Shown one piece after another: positions 2,102 to 9,153 of a DNA stretch of 11,839 bases. This stretch comes from Candidatus Aerophobota bacterium (GTDB taxonomy: Bacteria > Aerophobota > Aerophobia > Aerophobales > B3-G15). The notes under the pieces were generated by a model, which was given only the letters and a program-made list of their open reading frames with translations, searched no databases and was not told where the DNA came from. Each line of letters begins with the position of its first letter. The stretch's first letter is position 1. The position numbers and the translations under genes are program-made. Where the stretch lies: NCBI GenBank assembly GCA_014859225.1, contig JACUUP010000271.1:1-11839 (forward strand). Reading direction: 5' to 3'.

Positions 2102-2240
2102 TGTAGGCGCACCTTTTAAGGTGCGTGGTATTTCTTCCGTATTAATGTAGCCGCACCCTTCAGGGTGCGCTCTTTTACGCAGGCTAAAGCCTGCGGCTAC
2201 ATAGGTATTCTTCTCGCGGGCTAAAGGTTGCAGCCACCTA
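2102..2240. repeat. degraded outer palindromic element, split by an inner copy
   Basis: This is most of the secG-mtrB gap. The left part, 2102-2126, is TGTAGG plus a perfect hairpin (stem CGCACCTT at 2108-2115, AAGGTGCG at 2118-2125). The right part, 2215-2240, is CGCGGGCTAAAGGTTGCAG then CCACCTA, a decayed hairpin with G-U pairs and a mismatch. TAGG (2104-2107) can pair with CCTA (2237-2240). Placed together without the middle, these parts have the same plan as the intact element at 2146-2201: terminal TGTAG, a GCACC hairpin, a pyrimidine-rich spacer, a GGCTAAAG hairpin, and a terminal inverted end. The GGTATTTCTTC at 2127-2137 and GGTATTCTTC at 2204-2213 flank the inner copy. The family is not identified; a REP/MITE-like non-autonomous element is inferred. 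Confidence 0.6.
2146..2201. repeat. intact two-hairpin palindromic (REP/MITE-like) element
   Basis: A 56-bp element bounded by perfect 6-bp inverted ends TGTAGC (2146-2151) and GCTACA (2196-2201). It contains two perfect 8-bp hairpins, each with a 2-nt loop: CGCACCCT/AGGGTGCG (2152-2169) and CGCAGGCT/AGCCTGCG (2178-2195), separated by CTCTTTTA. As RNA it would fold into a three-way, cloverleaf-like junction. Perfect pairing suggests recent mobility or selection. No transposase is seen in the window; mobilisation in trans is inferred. Confidence 0.7.
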
Positions 2241-2241
2241 T

Positions 2242-2269
2242 TTGACAAAAATTTTATTTTTGCTAATAA
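2242..2269 (+). promoter_or_regulatory. promoter of mtrB-trp operon
   Basis: A perfect -35 box TTGACA (2242-2247) is followed, after 16 bases, by TAATAA (2264-2269), directly preceded by an extended -10 TGC (2261-2263). The spacer is A/T-rich. It starts two bases after the palindromic repeat ends. With a usual 6-9 base distance, transcription would start at about 2276-2279, that is, at or next to the mtrB ATG (2279). No second promoter of this quality is visible between mtrB and trpE, so it probably drives the whole operon. Confidence 0.7.
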
Positions 2270-2278
2270 AGTAGCATT

Positions 2279-2524
2279 ATGGACATACAGGATGAAGTTG
2301 TAGCTGAATATATTGTGATTAAGGCACTGGAGAGGGGGGTTACCATTATCGGGCTAACGCGTGGGGAAATGACCAGGATTCATCATACCGAGAAACTGGA
2401 CAAAGGAGAATTAATGGTAGCTCAGTTCACACGGCATACATCTGCTATAAAAATTAGAGGAAAAGCAGAGGTTTTTACAAAATATGGAAAAGTAGAACTG
2501 GAAGGACAGGAAGCTAAAGGTTAA
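2279..2524 (+). CDS. mtrB: TRAP, trp RNA-binding attenuation protein
   Basis: Tryptophan-activated RNA-binding protein; in Bacillus it forms an 11-subunit ring that wraps RNA carrying repeated GAG/UAG triplets. The 81-residue product matches B. subtilis TRAP as I recall it, with +2 numbering: [23 protein letters not shown] and [14 protein letters not shown]. The RNA-contact residues Lys37, Lys56 and Arg58 correspond to Lys39, Lys58 and Arg60. Tryptophan-pocket residues (Thr25, Thr30, Gln47, Thr49, Ser53) correspond to Thr27, Thr32, Gln49, Thr51 and Ser55. Bacillus Phe32, which I recall contacting RNA bases, is Ile34 here. There are no Trp residues. No Shine-Dalgarno precedes the ATG and the promoter -10 ends only 9 bases before it, so a leaderless mRNA is likely. 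It lies 53 bp upstream of trpE, whose start region carries a matching TRAP site. The family call is secure; regulatory action is inferred. Confidence 0.93.
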
Positions 2525-2544
2525 ATGTAATAAATTAAAAACTT

Positions 2545-2597
2545 GAGAATAGCAGAGAAAAGGAAGGAGCAATATAGATGAGACAAGATGAGACGAG
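2545..2597 (+). promoter_or_regulatory. TRAP-binding NAG repeat array over the trpE ribosome-binding site
   Basis: RNA site read on the + strand. NAG triplets start at 2545 (GAG), 2550 (UAG), 2555 (GAG), 2560 (AAG), 2575 (UAG), 2580 (GAG), 2585 (AAG), 2590 (GAG) and 2595 (GAG), all on one exact 5-nt register with 2-nt spacers that contain no G. The two register slots at 2565 and 2570 do not match, but an off-register GAG at 2567-2569 forms the 3' end of the trpE Shine-Dalgarno (GGAAGGAG, 2562-2569). The span is exactly eleven slots. The trpE ATG (2578-2580) lies inside. Known TRAP sites are (G/U)AG repeats with 2-3 nt spacers, and some Bacillus sites overlap ribosome-binding sites and repress translation. 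I infer the same here. Confidence 0.85.
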
Positions 2598-4161
2598 GCG
2601 GATGCGCTCTATTTTTTTTGAGCCAAAAAGAGCAACATATTACCCTGAATTTGCTGAGTTTGAAAAACTTTGCCGGCAGGGTAATTTAATTCCTATCTAT
2701 AGAGAAATACTCGCCGATTTAGAAACTCCATTGTCTGCTTTTATGAAACTGCAGCCGCAAGAAAAAAGCTCTGAGGGAAAATTACAAGATTATACCTACC
2801 TTTTAGAAAGCGTGGAAAAAGGAGAGCGTCTTGGAAGATACTCATTTTTAGGAATTGACCCCTTCATGATTTTTGAAAGTAAGGGAAAAAAAGGGCGGCT
2901 TTTTTCTTCAACGGGCAAAGTAGAAATTCATAATATAGAAAATGACCCCCTTCAAACTTTGAAGCAGATTATGCAACGATTTAAAGTGGTAAACCTTCCT
3001 CACCTTCCTATTTTTTCTGGAGGAGCAGTTGGATATGTGGGATACGATGTAGTTAAGTTCTGGGAAAAGATTTCTTTTTTAGATAAAAAAGATTCAGATT
3101 TTCCTGATTTATTTTTTATATTTACGAAAAGTGTAGTTATATTTGACCATCTTGACCACCGCATAAAGATAATAAGTTTTGCTTTTTTAGATGAAGATGA
3201 AGGTAGCCCTGAAAAAATTTACCAGAGAACAACACAGAGAATAGATGAGATAGTTTTTAGGTTAAGGAGTAAATTTTCTTCATCTTTGGAGATTTCAAGC
3301 TGTATCCCGGAAAAAAGGGAAATTGAATCTAATTTTAGCCCGGAAAGTTTTACAAAAGCTGTAGAAAAGGCTAAGGAGTACATAAGGGATGGAGATATTT
3401 TTCAGGTGGTTATATCTCAGGAATTTAGCAGGAAAATTTCTTCTTCTTCTCTTGATATTTATAGAGTTTTAAGGTCCTTGAATCCTTCGCCTTATATGTA
3501 TTTTTTAAAATGTGGTGATTTTTCTATTGCAGGCTCGTCTCCCGAGATTTTAGTGCGTAAGGAAGGAAAGGAAGTTATACTCAGACCCATTGCCGGGACA
3601 AGACCAAGAGGAAGCTGCGAGGAAGATGATGCAAGGCTGACAGATGAGCTTTTAAAAAACGATAAAGAAAGAGCCGAGCATATAATGCTGGTGGACCTTG
3701 GTAGAAATGACCTGGGAAGAGTTTGCGATTATGGGACAGTGAAAGTTAAAGAACTTTTTTCTCTTGAGAAATATTCACATGTGATGCATCTTGTCTCCGA
3801 GGTCCGGGGAACCTTACGTGATGGATTAGACCAATTTGACCTTTTGCGAGCCTGTTTCCCCGCAGGAACTGTTTCTGGTGCACCCAAGGTAAGAGCTATG
3901 CAGATAATTGAAGAGCTTGAGCCTTGCTGCCGGGGAGCTTATGGAGGAGCTCTTGGTTATTTTAGCTTTTCCGGTAATATGGATACCTGCATAATTATTC
4001 GCACTATGATTGTGAAGGGTGATACAGCTTACATTCAGGCAGGGGCAGGAATTGTTGCTGATTCTATTCCAGAAAATGAGTTTAAAGAAACTGTAAATAA
4101 AGCTAAAGCTTTAACTTCAGCCATAGAGCTTACCGAGGAGGGAAAAGGATGGTTCTGGTAA
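2578..4161 (+). CDS. trpE: anthranilate synthase component I
   Basis: Makes anthranilate from chorismate with ammonia supplied by TrpG; first committed step of tryptophan synthesis. The 527-residue protein has the tryptophan feedback-site motif LLES at residues 75-78, [10 protein letters not shown], then the chorismate-binding domain: [72 protein letters not shown] and [10 protein letters not shown]. The start at 2578 is supported by GGAAGGAG eight bases upstream; family similarity begins only at about residue 20 ([11 protein letters not shown]), so the first 20 residues are an extension that carries the 3' half of the TRAP array. An ATG at 2602 is a weaker alternative. Only three Trp residues occur, two of them in the last three positions (WFW). 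It overlaps trpG by 13 bases. Regulation by allosteric feedback plus TRAP translational repression is inferred. Confidence 0.96.
2595..2619 (+). promoter_or_regulatory. possible pause site: weak bulged stem plus T8 in trpE
   Basis: Immediately after the TRAP array, GAG-G-CG (2595-2600) can pair with CGCTC (2605-2609) as a 5-bp stem with one bulged G and a GATG loop. Eight T residues follow at 2612-2619. The stem is too weak for a confident terminator, and it lies within trpE codons. A T-rich tract here could act as an RNA-polymerase pause, as NusG-dependent pausing does in the Bacillus trp leader. This is speculative. Confidence 0.25.
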
Positions 4162-4739
4162 TTGATAACTATGACTCTTTTGTCTACAACCTGGTTCAAT
4201 ATTTGGGTGAGTTAGGAGAGGTGGTAGAGGTTTATAGAAATGATAAAATATCTTGTGACAGGATAAAGGATAAAAATCCTTCCGCAATTGTTATATCTCC
4301 TGGCCCGGGTAGACCCTCTGATGCCGGCATATCCAATAAGGTAATTGAGCGCTTTGCTGGAGTTATTCCTATCTTAGGAGTTTGTCTTGGCCATCAGTGC
4401 ATTGGGGAAGTCTTTGGGGGAAGAATTGTTCGGGCTAAAAGATTAATGCATGGAAAAACATCTCTTATCCATCACAGCGGGAGGGAAATATACCATGGAG
4501 TGGAAAATCCTTTCATAGCTACCCGTTATCATTCTTTAATCATTAAAGAGGATACTCTTGCCTCCTGTTTTTTATTGACAGCCTGGACAAAAGAGGGGGA
4601 AATAATGGGAATAAGACATGAAAGTTATCCTCTATTTGGTATGCAGTTTCACCCTGAGTCCATATTAACGAAAGAAGGTATGAAACTTTTAAGTAATTTC
4701 TTGAATATAAAAGAATCAATCCCCCTGAGGATAAGATGA
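4149..4739 (+). CDS. trpG: anthranilate synthase component II, glutamine amidotransferase
   Basis: Hydrolyses glutamine and passes ammonia to TrpE. Class I amidotransferase of 196 residues, normal for TrpG/PabA. Motifs in order: [31 protein letters not shown], nucleophile Cys79 in GVCLGHQ, MHGKTS at 100-105, RYHSL, and catalytic His168 and Glu170 in QFHPES. The start at 4149 has GAGGAGGG at 4135-4142, all inside the trpE 3' end, and the genes overlap by 13 bases, so translation should be coupled to trpE. It overlaps trpD by 4 bases (ATGA). Whether it also serves folate synthesis with a PabB elsewhere, as in Bacillus, cannot be judged here. Confidence 0.95.
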   Translation: MVLVIDNYDSFVYNLVQYLGELGEVVEVYRNDKISCDRIKDKNPSAIVISPGPGRPSDAGISNKVIERFAGVIPILGVCLGHQCIGEVFGGRIVRAKRLMHGKTSLIHHSGREIYHGVENPFIATRYHSLIIKEDTLASCFLLTAWTKEGEIMGIRHESYPLFGMQFHPESILTKEGMKLLSNFLNIKESIPLRIR

Positions 4740-5752
4740 TTAGAGAAGCGCTAAGTATGCTTGTCCAGAGAAAAAACTTGAGCAAGGCTCAGGCAAAAGA
4801 AGTTATGTCTGAGATTATGCAGGGAAAAACAACCTCCTCTCAAATTGCCGCCTTTCTTACCGCCCTTAGAATGAAAAAAGAGACGGTGGAGGAGATAACT
4901 GGTATGGCTGAGGAGATGATGGATAAAGCTGTAAGTTTTCCCTGGAATGGTGGTATTCTTGTAGATACCTGTGGCACAGGAGGGGACGGGATTGGTACAT
5001 TCAATGTATCAACGAGCTGTGTTTTTGTAGTGGCAGCTAGCGGGGTAAAGGTAGCTAAACATGGAAATAGAGCTCTATCAAGTATGTGTGGCAGTGCTGA
5101 TGTTTTAGAGGAACTCGGAGTTAAACTTGAGATTTCACCTGATTTAGTAAAAAAATCTTTAGAGGAGATAGGTGTAGGTTTTTTATATGCTCCTTTTTTT
5201 CATCCTGCTATGAAGTATGCTTTGCATCCAAGACGTGAGATAGGAATAAGGACAGTGTTTAATATTTTAGGTCCTTTAACTAACCCTTTGAGGGCAAATG
5301 TTCGCCTGTTAGGGGTTTACAGCTCATCCCTCCTTTTTACCATAGCCTGCGTTGTATCACATCTGGGAGTTAAAAGAGCTTTTATAGTGCGGGGCGAGGA
5401 TGGATTGGATGAGGTTAGCGTAACCTCATCTACTAAGGTGGTAGAGTTAAGGGAGGGAGAAATTATTGGTTACTCTATAGAACCTGAAAAACTTGGTCTG
5501 AGGAGGTGGTCATTAAGCTCACTTAAAGGGGGAGATAGGAAAGTAAATGCTGGGATAATGCGCAATATTTTAAGTGGCAAAGAGAAAGGAGCTAAAAGAG
5601 ATATGGTGCTGATTAACTCCGCCTTCTGTTTGTTGGGAGCAGGTGTAGCCAGTAATCCTGAAGAGGGAGTGGAAATTGCCGCCTTCTGTATTGATTCAGG
5701 AAAAGCAGTTAAAAAATTAGATGATTTAATAGAGTTTACAAATAGTATTTAA
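4736..5752 (+). CDS. trpD: anthranilate phosphoribosyltransferase
   Basis: Joins anthranilate to phosphoribosyl pyrophosphate, second step of the pathway. The 338-residue length is normal. Motifs: a helical N-terminal domain (residues 1-60), DTCGTGGDGIGTFNVST (78-93) for pyrophosphate binding, KHGNRALSSMCGSADVLEELG (108-128; the family more often has HGNRSVSSKSGSAD), FFHPAMKYALHPRREIGIRT, NILGPLTNP and RGEDGLDEVS. The ATG overlaps the trpG stop as ATGA with TGAGG at 4726-4730, so it is translationally coupled. It ends 22 bases before trpC. Confidence 0.96.
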   Translation: MIREALSMLVQRKNLSKAQAKEVMSEIMQGKTTSSQIAAFLTALRMKKETVEEITGMAEEMMDKAVSFPWNGGILVDTCGTGGDGIGTFNVSTSCVFVVAASGVKVAKHGNRALSSMCGSADVLEELGVKLEISPDLVKKSLEEIGVGFLYAPFFHPAMKYALHPRREIGIRTVFNILGPLTNPLRANVRLLGVYSSSLLFTIACVVSHLGVKRAFIVRGEDGLDEVSVTSSTKVVELREGEIIGYSIEPEKLGLRRWSLSSLKGGDRKVNAGIMRNILSGKEKGAKRDMVLINSAFCLLGAGVASNPEEGVEIAAFCIDSGKAVKKLDDLIEFTNSI

Positions 5753-5774: not shown

Positions 5775-6563
5775 ATGTTTCAGGATATACTTGAGAAGAT
5801 AATAATTTTCAAGAAAAAAGAGGTTGCAAAAAAAAAGAAAACTTTGCCCCTTTTTAGGTTAAAGGTAAGATTAGATGAAACCCAATATCCCCGAGATTTT
5901 AAAACAAGTATTTCTTGTGGGGATAGGGTGCGCATAATTGCCGAGATTAAACGGCGTTCCCCCTCCGCCGGTATTTTAAGGGATAATTTAAACCCTGCTC
6001 AGTTTGCCAGGCTCTATGAGCAAAATGGAGCCTCAGCTATATCCGTTTTAATTGATGAAAAGTTCTTCGGGGGAAACCTGAAAGACCTGCAGATGGCGAA
6101 AGGGGCAGTTTCTTTACCTGTTCTTGCTAAAGAGTTTATAGTGGATGAGTATCAAATCTATGAAGCAAAACTTTACGGTGCAGATGCCATCTTACTCATC
6201 GCAAGAATGCTCAGCCAGGAAAAACTTCTGAAGTTTTATCAAACTGCCTGTAGCATCCAGATGGGGTGCATAGTAGAGGTACACTCTCCTGAAGATGTTA
6301 AAAAAATTTTGCATCTTCCCTTCCCACTGCTCGTGGGAATTAATAATAGAGACTTAAAGAATTTTGAAGTTAATCTAAGCATAACCGAGAGGATTTTAAG
6401 TCTTCTTCCCCCATCCTCTGTTGTAATTAGTGAAAGTGGCATAAAAACTGCTGAGGATATAAAACTATTAAGAGCAAAGGGTGTGCATATCTTTCTGGTA
6501 GGAGAGGCTATTTTGCGAAGTTCAAATCCTGGTGAAAAGTTAAGAGAGCTTTGTTATGGTTAA
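5775..6563 (+). CDS. trpC: indole-3-glycerol phosphate synthase
   Basis: Closes the ring of carboxyphenylamino-deoxyribulose phosphate to give indole-3-glycerol phosphate. Single-domain (beta/alpha)8 enzyme of 262 residues, not fused to TrpF. Active-site residues are visible: Glu57 and Lys59 in IIAEIKRRSPSAG, Lys119 in VLAKEFIVDE, Glu168 in GCIVEVH, Asn191 in GINNRDL, and Glu220/Ser221 in VISESGI; the phosphate site GEAIL follows. The ATG at 5775 has GAGG at 5764-5767; a GGAGG at 5756-5760 lies further upstream. This is the only internal junction in the operon with a gap (22 bases), so it has an independent ribosome entry site. The C-terminus overlaps trpF by 8 bases. It contains no Trp. Confidence 0.96.
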   Translation: MFQDILEKIIIFKKKEVAKKKKTLPLFRLKVRLDETQYPRDFKTSISCGDRVRIIAEIKRRSPSAGILRDNLNPAQFARLYEQNGASAISVLIDEKFFGGNLKDLQMAKGAVSLPVLAKEFIVDEYQIYEAKLYGADAILLIARMLSQEKLLKFYQTACSIQMGCIVEVHSPEDVKKILHLPFPLLVGINNRDLKNFEVNLSITERILSLLPPSSVVISESGIKTAEDIKLLRAKGVHIFLVGEAILRSSNPGEKLRELCYG

Positions 6564-7173
6564 AATTAAAATATGCGGTATAACCAATAAAGAGGATGCT
6601 TTCTTGGCTGTAAATTTGGGAGTAGATGCTCTTGGGTTTATCTTTGCAAAAAGTCCAAGACAAATTGCCCCCGAGGAGGCAAAGAGGATAATCAAGAAGC
6701 TTCCTCCTTTTGTAGATAGAGTGGGTGTTTTTGTTAACGAGGAGCCGCAAAAAGTACTACAGATTGCACGTTTTTGTCTTTTGTCCACCTGTCAGTTTCA
6801 TGGAGATGAATCTCCTTCTTATTGTGAAGAGTTTCCCTATAAGCTGATAAAATCTTTTTTTGTGAAAGATGAAGTGCCTGATAATATTTTGGATTACGAA
6901 GGCAGGGTTGATGCCTGCCTTCTGGATACTTTCTCTTCAGCTAAAAGGGGTGGAACGGGAAAGGTTTTTAACTGGGAAATTGCAAGGAAAGTGAAAATGC
7001 CTGGTCTTCCTCTGATTCTTTCCGGAGGGCTTACCCCGGATAATGTAGCAGAGGCTATTGACAAAGTTAGACCTTATGCTGTAGATGTTGCAAGTGGTGT
7101 GGAGGATGCACCGGGAAAAAAATCAAGAAATAAACTGCAGAAGTTTATTGAGATTGTAAGGAGAGCGAAATGA
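6556..7173 (+). CDS. trpF: phosphoribosylanthranilate isomerase
   Basis: Amadori rearrangement of phosphoribosylanthranilate to the TrpC substrate. The 205-residue length is normal for a stand-alone TrpF. Catalytic Cys7 is in KICGIT and catalytic Asp124 in CLLDTF; other motifs are [51 protein letters not shown] and [14 protein letters not shown]. The ATG lies inside the end of trpC (8-base overlap) with a modest GAGAG at 6544-6548, so it is probably coupled to trpC. It overlaps trpB by 4 bases. In pathway order TrpF acts before TrpC, although the genes are in the reverse order. Confidence 0.96.
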
Positions 7174-8366
7174 GGTATTATAGACTGCCTGATTTCAGGG
7201 GTCATTTTGGCGAATTTGGAGGAAGATTCGTCCCCGAGATACTGATGCCTGCTCTTCAAGAACTTGAGCAGGCTTATATTAAGGCAAAAAAAGATAAGAT
7301 GGGGTTTCAAAAAGAGCTAAGCTTTTATCTTCGCCAGTATGCAGGAAGACCCACACCTTTATATTTTGCCCGCAGATTAACGGAGTATCTGGGGGGAGCA
7401 AAGATTTATTTAAAGAGGGAAGACCTTGCCCATACAGGCTCTCATAAGATTAACAATACTTTGGGGCAGGTAATTCTGGCAGGAAGAATGGGTAAAAAGC
7501 GTATAATTGCAGAGACCGGAGCCGGACAACATGGTGTTGCTACAGCTACAGCAGCGGCTGTTTTTGGTTTTCCCTGTCAGGTATATATGGGAGAGGAAGA
7601 TATTAAAAGACAGGAAATTAATGTTTTTAAAATGAGGCTTCTTGGAGCAAAGGTTGTTCCTGTTGGTCTTGGGAGTAGAACGCTCAAGGATGCTATTAAC
7701 GAAGCTATTAGAGACTGGGCTACGAATGTTGAGGAAACCTTTTATGTTTTAGGCTCGGTGGTTGGACCGCATCCTTATCCTGTGATGGTGAGGGATTTTC
7801 AGTCAGTTATCGGCAAAGAACTGAAAAGACAAATCCTTGTTCAGGAGAAAAAACTACCCGATGTATTGATTGCCTGCGTGGGAGGTGGGAGCAATTCTAT
7901 AGGCATGTTTTATCCTTTCTTGCAAGAAAAGGTTGAACTGATAGGAGTGGAAGCAGCTGGTTTTGGGCTTTCCACAGCGTTTCATGGGGCTACTTTAGCT
8001 AAGGGAACTGTTGGGGTCCTGCACGGGAGTAAAAATTTTCTTCTCCAGGATAATAACGGTCAGATTCTTCCCACCCATTCCGTAGCAGCAGGTCTTGATT
8101 ATCCGGGGGTGGGTCCTGAACACTCCTATCTGAAGCGGACGGGGAGAGTTAAATATACAACTGTTGGTGACGAGGAGGCACTTGATGCTTTTAGGTTATT
8201 AACCAGGCTTGAGGGAATAATCCCTGCTCTGGAAAGCTCTCATGCCATAGCCTATGCCCTGAAAACTGCCCCTTCTATGGATAAGAGGGCAACTTGTGTT
8301 GTGAATCTTTCTGGCAGGGGAGATAAAGATGTGCAACTCGTTAATGAGAGGCTACAAAATGAGTAA
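7170..8366 (+). CDS. trpB: tryptophan synthase beta chain
   Basis: Pyridoxal-phosphate enzyme that condenses indole with serine to make tryptophan, in a complex with TrpA that channels indole. The 398-residue length fits the TrpA-partnered TrpB1 type. The N-terminus reads [17 protein letters not shown]. The cofactor lysine is Lys93 in HTGSHKINN and the catalytic glutamate Glu115 in [16 protein letters not shown]; phosphate binding is by GGGSNSIG and the C-terminal SGRGDKD contacts the cofactor ring. The ATG overlaps the trpF stop as ATGA with AAGGAGAG at 7158-7165. It overlaps the trpA start. One Trp only. Confidence 0.97.
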
Positions 8367-9153
8367 CATAAAGGCTACATTTGATGTGCTACAAAAAAGA
8401 GGTGAGAAAGCTTTCATCCCTTTTCTTACCCTGGGTTATCCTGATATGAAAACCTGTATGGATTTAATTTTAGAACTGGAAAAAAGAGGTGCAGATATTA
8501 TTGAGCTTGGTATTCCCTTCTCTGACCCCCTTGCCGATGGTCCTGTTATTCAAAATGCCTCCTATGAAGCTTTGAGGGGTGGAGTTACTCTAAAAAAAGC
8601 AATTAAATTTGTGAGCAAGCTAAGAGAAAAAACATCCATACCCCTTATCTTTATGGGATACTATAATCCTGTTTTTAAATTTGGCCAGGAAAGATTTGTT
8701 CAACAGGCAAAAGATGCTGGAGTTGATGGTTTAATTTTAGCTGACCTTCCTCCTGAAGAAGGCGAAGATATAAGACAAATGGCGAAAGAAAAAGATTTAG
8801 CTTTAATTTTTCTTCTAACTCCCGTAAGCTCAGAGGCAAGAATAAAACTTATCTCAAGCATAAGCGAAGGTTTTATTTACTGTGTCTCCTACACGGGTAT
8901 AACCGGGGGAGGAGAAGAAAAACAAACAATGTTAACTTCACTGCTTCATAAAATTAAGTCCTGCTCAAAAACCCCCGTGGTTATAGGGTTTGGTATCTCT
9001 TCCCCTTCCCAGGCAAAAAAAGCTTCCCGCCTTGCCGATGGGGTGATAGTTGGCTCGGCAATTATCCGTAAAATAATGGAAAATAAAGGTAAAGATGATA
9101 TGGTAAATAAGGTGGGGGATTTTGCCCTCTCCCTTTGCCAGGCGGTTAAATGA
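8359..9153 (+). CDS. trpA: tryptophan synthase alpha chain
   Basis: Cleaves indole-3-glycerol phosphate to indole and glyceraldehyde 3-phosphate; partner of TrpB. From the ATG at 8359 the product has 264 residues, and the catalytic acids fall at Glu49 (IIELGIPF) and Asp60 (SDPLADGP), the same numbers as in the enteric enzyme. This supports this start over in-frame codons at 8329 and 8344. Other motifs: [33 protein letters not shown] (loop 6 region) and GFGISSP, then VGSAI for phosphate. The start overlaps the end of trpB and uses GAGAGG at 8345-8350. It contains no Trp and is the last gene of the operon. Confidence 0.96.

What the first reader, a model, noticed from the sequence alone, without database searches (positions are those of the whole stretch)
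2242..4739. Self-contained TRAP circuit: mtrB directly heads the trp operon it appears to control
The small gene at 2279-2524 keeps the TRAP RNA-contact (Lys39, Lys58, Arg60) and tryptophan-pocket residues, and the next gene, trpE, begins inside an array of TRAP-type NAG triplets. In B. subtilis mtrB sits away from trp, next to mtrA/folE, and the trp leader works mainly by transcription attenuation. Here sensor and target share one locus and probably one transcript, and the site covers the ribosome-binding site. Because the site is downstream of mtrB, repression would spare the sensor while shutting off trpE and the coupled trpG and trpD.
Basis: partly seen in the sequence, partly recalled or inferred. 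Interest (0 to 1): 0.8.

Follow-up and report, generated by a model that had tools for sequence, protein, structure and literature searches.

The report
TRAP gene heading its own operon
In an uncultured Aerophobetes bacterium the gene for a tryptophan-sensing RNA-binding protein sits at the head of the tryptophan operon, and its predicted RNA site covers the start of the next gene, trpE, whereas every relative examined uses a transcription terminator there instead.

Summary
2279-2524 encodes a true TRAP (MtrB), with RNA-contact and Trp-pocket residues kept. Ten NAG triplets at 2545-2597 span the Shine-Dalgarno (2564-2569) and ATG (2578) of trpE; nine of eleven 5-nt slots are filled, which none of 20,000 shuffles matched. 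A TTGACA 37 nt before mtrB, conserved in three species, and terminator-like hairpins after secG suggest an mtrB-trpEGDCFBA unit.

Not unique: mtrB lies upstream of trpE in other Aerophobetes and in six Halobacteroidaceae-type genomes plus another Bacillota. Most Clostridia and Chloroflexi have dnaE-mtrB, Bacilli folE-mtrB.

The window keeps the terminator's U8 tail, but its stem is weak (-4.7), antiterminator pairing is absent, the ancestral trpE ATG reads ACA, and the start has moved upstream into the array.

So direct ribosome-site occlusion by TRAP is likely here, with the terminator a relic. Aerophobetes TRAP-like sites also cover trpX-like Trp-transporter RBSs. All function is inferred; the rearrangement rests on one assembled genome.

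Verdict: real; new variant of a known kind.

The parts
2107..2169 (+). terminator-like hairpins (2107-2126, 2152-2169) in a palindromic, REP-like stretch after secG; likely separate the pgk-tpi-secG unit from mtrB
   Evidence: inference
2242..2269 (+). predicted promoter of the mtrB-trp unit: TTGACA 2242-2247 and extended -10-like TGcTAATAA; TTGACA is exactly 37 nt before the mtrB ATG here, in L012 and in L013, so the start point would fall at or just before the ATG (leaderless mtrB)
   Evidence: sequence; spacing by counting; the consensus scan did not flag this weak -10
2279..2524 (+). mtrB, TRAP, 81 aa
2545..2597 (+). TRAP-type array of 10 NAG triplets, nine of them on an 11-slot 5-nt register
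2564..2569 (+). Shine-Dalgarno AAGGAG of trpE inside the array
2595..2619 (+). relic terminator: weak stem (about -4.7 kcal/mol) plus U8 tract, homologous in position to the strong terminator of L012; now inside trpE codons 6-14
2578..4161 (+). trpE; start in the array; the codon at 2635-2637 (ACA, Thr20) aligns with the ATG start of relatives (MYYPEF)
4149..4739 (+). trpG, overlaps trpE by 13 nt
4736..5752 (+). trpD, overlaps trpG by 4 nt
5775..9153 (+). trpC, trpF, trpB, trpA

Best explanation
This is a TRAP circuit in which mtrB is the first gene of the trp operon. Shown by sequence: a genuine TRAP, a TRAP-type array over the SD and start codon of trpE, gene order mtrB-trpEGDCFBA, and loss of the strong terminator, antiterminator and original start codon that the relatives have. 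Inferred: one transcript is made from the promoter at 2242, with mtrB leaderless or nearly so; with tryptophan, TRAP rings bind RNA 2545-2597 and block ribosome entry on trpE, and through overlapping genes reduce trpG and trpD translation; mtrB, being upstream, escapes. In relatives the same array instead tips a terminator/antiterminator switch between mtrB and trpE.
For: TRAP family and residues; array statistics; array over SD and ATG with AAGGAG 8 nt from ATG; arrays kept in relatives; terminators in 12 of 12 other leaders and antiterminator pairing beyond shuffles in six, window neither; alignment showing the conserved CTATTTTTTTTG tail and ATG to ACA; the same RBS-overlap design on four of five trpX-like transporter genes of the order; an intact operon downstream.
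Against: No RNA or binding data. Only one assembled genome has the rearranged trpE start. Two AAG triplets and spacers of 4 and 5 nt around the SD make the array imperfect. The U8 tract and a weak stem remain, so termination may still contribute; B. subtilis TRAP gave 16-fold regulation without the attenuator stem and about 12-fold without stem and U-tract (PMC3913778).
Confidence: 0.68

Rival explanations
1. TRAP acts mainly on transcription here too: bound TRAP causes termination at the remaining weak hairpin and U8 tract inside trpE, as in the relatives' attenuators.
For: Conserved CTATTTTTTTTG tail; weak stem next to the array; TRAP-induced termination without the attenuator stem in B. subtilis (PMC3913778).
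Against: Stem -4.7 against -8.5 to -16.2 kcal/mol in relatives; antiterminator pairing at the shuffle mean; not flagged by the terminator scan, which flags L012.
Confidence: 0.18
2. The array is a decayed remnant of an attenuator and no longer binds TRAP; trpE is simply expressed from an upstream start.
For: Terminator and antiterminator are lost.
Against: The array is the best in the window and matches GAG/TAG rules better than that of G001, whose attenuator is intact (score 8.0 against 7.0); strong 5-nt register.
Confidence: 0.07
3. The odd trpE start is an assembly or sequencing artefact of this genome, and the true sequence has a terminator and ATG as in relatives.
For: Single assembled genome in 273 contigs; no second genome of the genus was found.
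Against: Several coordinated changes (lost ATG, 5-nt length change that keeps an open frame, a good SD, altered stem) are hard to get from random error.
Confidence: 0.07

Closest known systems
TRAP control of trpG (pabA), trpP and ycbK in Bacillus subtilis
   Same: NAG array over the translation initiation region, direct block of ribosome binding (PMC11255114, PMC4347634)
   Different: Here the target is trpE heading the full trp operon, and the sensor gene is the gene just upstream
TRAP transcription attenuation of the Bacillus subtilis trpEDCFBA leader
   Same: TRAP, NAG array upstream of trpE; the Aerophobetes relatives share the array-terminator-antiterminator layout
   Different: In the window terminator and antiterminator are degenerate and the array lies on the trpE start; mtrB is in the operon instead of beside folE
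mtrB-array-terminator-trpE loci of Halobacteroidaceae (Orenia, Natroniella, Halonatronum, Halanaerobacter, Fuchsiella)
   Same: mtrB upstream of trpE with a long array between; several also have an array at the trpE RBS
   Different: They keep a strong terminator after the first array; the window has one array doing the RBS job

Membership tests
TRAP (MtrB) protein family | Match to curated family model | tested here: met
   NF009724 126.9 bits against cut-off 117; PF02081 5e-37
TRAP (MtrB) protein family | RNA-contact Glu36, Lys37, Lys56, Arg58 and Trp-pocket residues | tested here: met
   E38, K39, K58, R60, T27, Q49, T51, S55; Phe32 replaced by Ile34
TRAP (MtrB) protein family | 11- or 12-subunit ring, Trp-activated RNA binding | not testable with these tools
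   needs purified protein; 11 slots of 5 nt in the RNA would suit an 11-subunit ring
TRAP RNA target | 9-11 NAG repeats, mainly GAG/UAG, spaced by 2-3 nt | tested here: met
   10 triplets, seven of nine spacers are 2 nt, two are 4 and 5 nt around the SD
RBS-occlusion type TRAP target (trpG, trpP) | array overlaps SD and start codon | tested here: met
   SD 2564-2569 and ATG 2578 lie within 2545-2597
B. subtilis-type trp attenuator | strong terminator after the array, plus antiterminator overlapping triplets | tested here: not met
   window stem -4.7, no antiterminator above shuffles; 12 of 12 relatives' leaders have a strong terminator
TRAP regulatory set of Bacillus | anti-TRAP antagonist | tested here: inconclusive

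The most novel reading that the evidence does not exclude
Within one family of Aerophobetes the same TRAP array has switched from transcription attenuation to direct translational repression of trpE: the terminator decayed into coding sequence and the start codon moved upstream into the array, while the sensor gene stayed in the unrepressed first position of the same operon.
Probability: 0.5. Interest if true: 0.62.

Novelty: new variant of a known kind. Interest (0 to 1): 0.52.

Why it matters
TRAP is a textbook regulator worked out in Bacillus. These loci show an apparently working TRAP system outside Bacillota, with the sensor encoded inside the operon it controls, and a natural sister pair (window and L012, same gene order) in which one array appears to act at two different levels. 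That makes the question of how an RNA regulator changes from transcriptional to translational control directly testable by comparing two short leaders in a laboratory strain.

Tried and rejected
Rfam scan of the window: no RNA family, so no T-box. Viral contigs: no mtrB relative. Anti-TRAP search in the genome: nothing, but no control. Other TRAP sites in the own genome: a strict five-triplet pattern gave three places, about the level of the reversed-pattern control; the other two score lower and one lies within a coding frame, so only the trpE site is convincing. DAHP synthase as a general target: array over its RBS only in genus g11 (2 genomes), not in the other 11 loci including the window's genome. 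No trpX-like gene found in the window's genome. The comparative papers on Gram-positive trp operons (Gutierrez-Preciado and colleagues) were not available, so earlier mention of mtrB-trp adjacency in Firmicutes cannot be excluded.

Full report
What was checked. The window is the whole of contig C109 of a 1.8 Mb genome (91% complete). Its nearest named relatives are Candidatus Aerophobetes. Gene order is pgk, tpi, secG, mtrB, trpE, trpG, trpD, trpC, trpF, trpB, trpA, then an M42 peptidase (pgk and tpi named from their sequences).

The sensor. The 81-aa product of 2279-2524 passes the curated MtrB cut-off and matches solved TRAP structures at E about 1e-27 and better. In an alignment of 39 TRAP sequences the window keeps Glu38, Lys39, Lys58 and Arg60 and the Trp-pocket residues Thr27, Gln49, Thr51, Ser55; Phe32 of Bacillus TRAP is Ile in the window, and Ile or Val throughout the Aerophobetes sampled. 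Residue roles are from general knowledge of B. subtilis and B. stearothermophilus TRAP.

The site. A chain search for NAG triplets finds one outstanding place on the + strand of the window, 2545-2597: GAGaaTAGcaGAGaaAAGgaagGAGcaataTAGatGAGacAAGatGAGacGAG. Nine of the eleven slots of a 5-nt register are NAG; 20,000 dinucleotide shuffles never gave nine. The register break falls on the SD AAGGAG (2564-2569). TRAP targets are 9-11 NAG repeats with short spacers, and one repeat over the RBS is enough to block ribosomes (PMC4347634).

Transcription unit. Terminator-like hairpins lie between secG and mtrB (2107-2126, 2152-2169). A TTGACA lies 37 nt before the mtrB ATG in the window, L012 and L013, followed by a -10-like TGnTANANA or TGnTAAACT. 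The start point would fall at or within a few bases of the ATG, and no SD precedes mtrB, so a leaderless mtrB message is inferred. The consensus scan did not flag this promoter in the window but did in L012.

Relatives. L012 (same family, same gene order) has 13 triplets at 2173-2243, then the terminator AGGCCCATCCTGGGCCTATTTTTTTT, then trpE at ATG 2287. Twelve leaders from eleven other genomes of the order all have a terminator 2-32 nt after the array with stems of -8.5 to -16.2 kcal/mol. In six of them pairing between the array and the 5' arm of the terminator is stronger than in 95% of shuffled arrays, with different sequences keeping the pairing, for example GAUGAGGCC:GGCCCAUC in L012 and GAUAAGCC:GGCUUAUC in L014. 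This is the B. subtilis attenuator logic. The window's stem is -4.7 and its pairing equals the shuffle mean.

The change in the window. Aligned with L012, the window keeps CTATTTTTTTTG, has different stem bases, a 5-nt length difference, and ACA where L012 has the trpE ATG. The frame is open back to ATG 2578, with a TAG stop just before it; ATG 2602 is the only other candidate and has a weaker SD. So trpE now starts inside the array and the old terminator lies in its codons 6-14. This is inference from one genome.

Wider census. Among the 80 closest mtrB loci in genome contigs, mtrB has trpE downstream in Aerophobetes (L012, L016, L040), six Halobacteroidaceae-type genomes and one other Bacillota (L073); in L014 it follows trpF. 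All seven non-Aerophobetes trp-linked loci have a long array after mtrB followed by a terminator, and several have a second array at the trpE RBS. Bacilli have folE-mtrB-hepS-ubiE; many Clostridia and Chloroflexi have dnaE-mtrB, often followed by pfk and pyk. These 80 are the best matches to the window protein, so the proportions are not a fair sample of all mtrB genes.

Regulon support. NAG arrays lie over the RBS of trpX-like Trp transporter genes in G003, G004 (two) and G008, and in G010 the order is mtrB-array-terminator-trpX. The trpX-like proteins match the TrpX model best but fall below its cut-off. This supports a working TRAP regulon in the order, with both modes of control in use.

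Conclusion. The RBS-occlusion reading is the most likely one for this genome, but the adjacency is shared with other lineages, and the notable point is the contrast with relatives that use attenuation. New variant of a known kind.

Noticed in passing
L013 (G002) 186-600 and L092 (G005) 66-300: mtrB is intact but the trp operon between it and the M42 peptidase gene is missing; L013 still carries the array and terminator, L092 does not. No trpE was found in either genome, so TRAP seems to outlive the pathway.
   Followed up: partly
L023, L025, L029 and L094, just upstream of mtrB: NAG triplet runs lie directly before mtrB itself, suggesting TRAP may regulate its own translation in some lineages; not seen in the window.
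   Followed up: partly
L151, L154, L155, L168: TRAP-type arrays over the RBS of trpX-like Trp transporter genes in Aerophobetes (scores 5.4-7.6).
   Followed up: yes
L160 and L161 (genus g11): Array over the RBS of DAHP synthase, the entry enzyme of aromatic synthesis; absent from the same gene in the other genomes.
   Followed up: yes
L020, L033 upstream of trpD; L019 upstream of trpB: Halobacteroidaceae trp operons carry several separate NAG arrays within one operon.
   Followed up: partly
many Clostridia and Chloroflexi loci, e.g. L021, L068: mtrB sits next to dnaE (often with pfk and pyk) and usually has no array nearby; its targets there are unknown.
   Followed up: no
window 2145-2202: Palindromic element containing GCAGGCTAAAGCCTGC, 8 exact pattern matches in the genome: a REP-like dispersed repeat.
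   Followed up: partly
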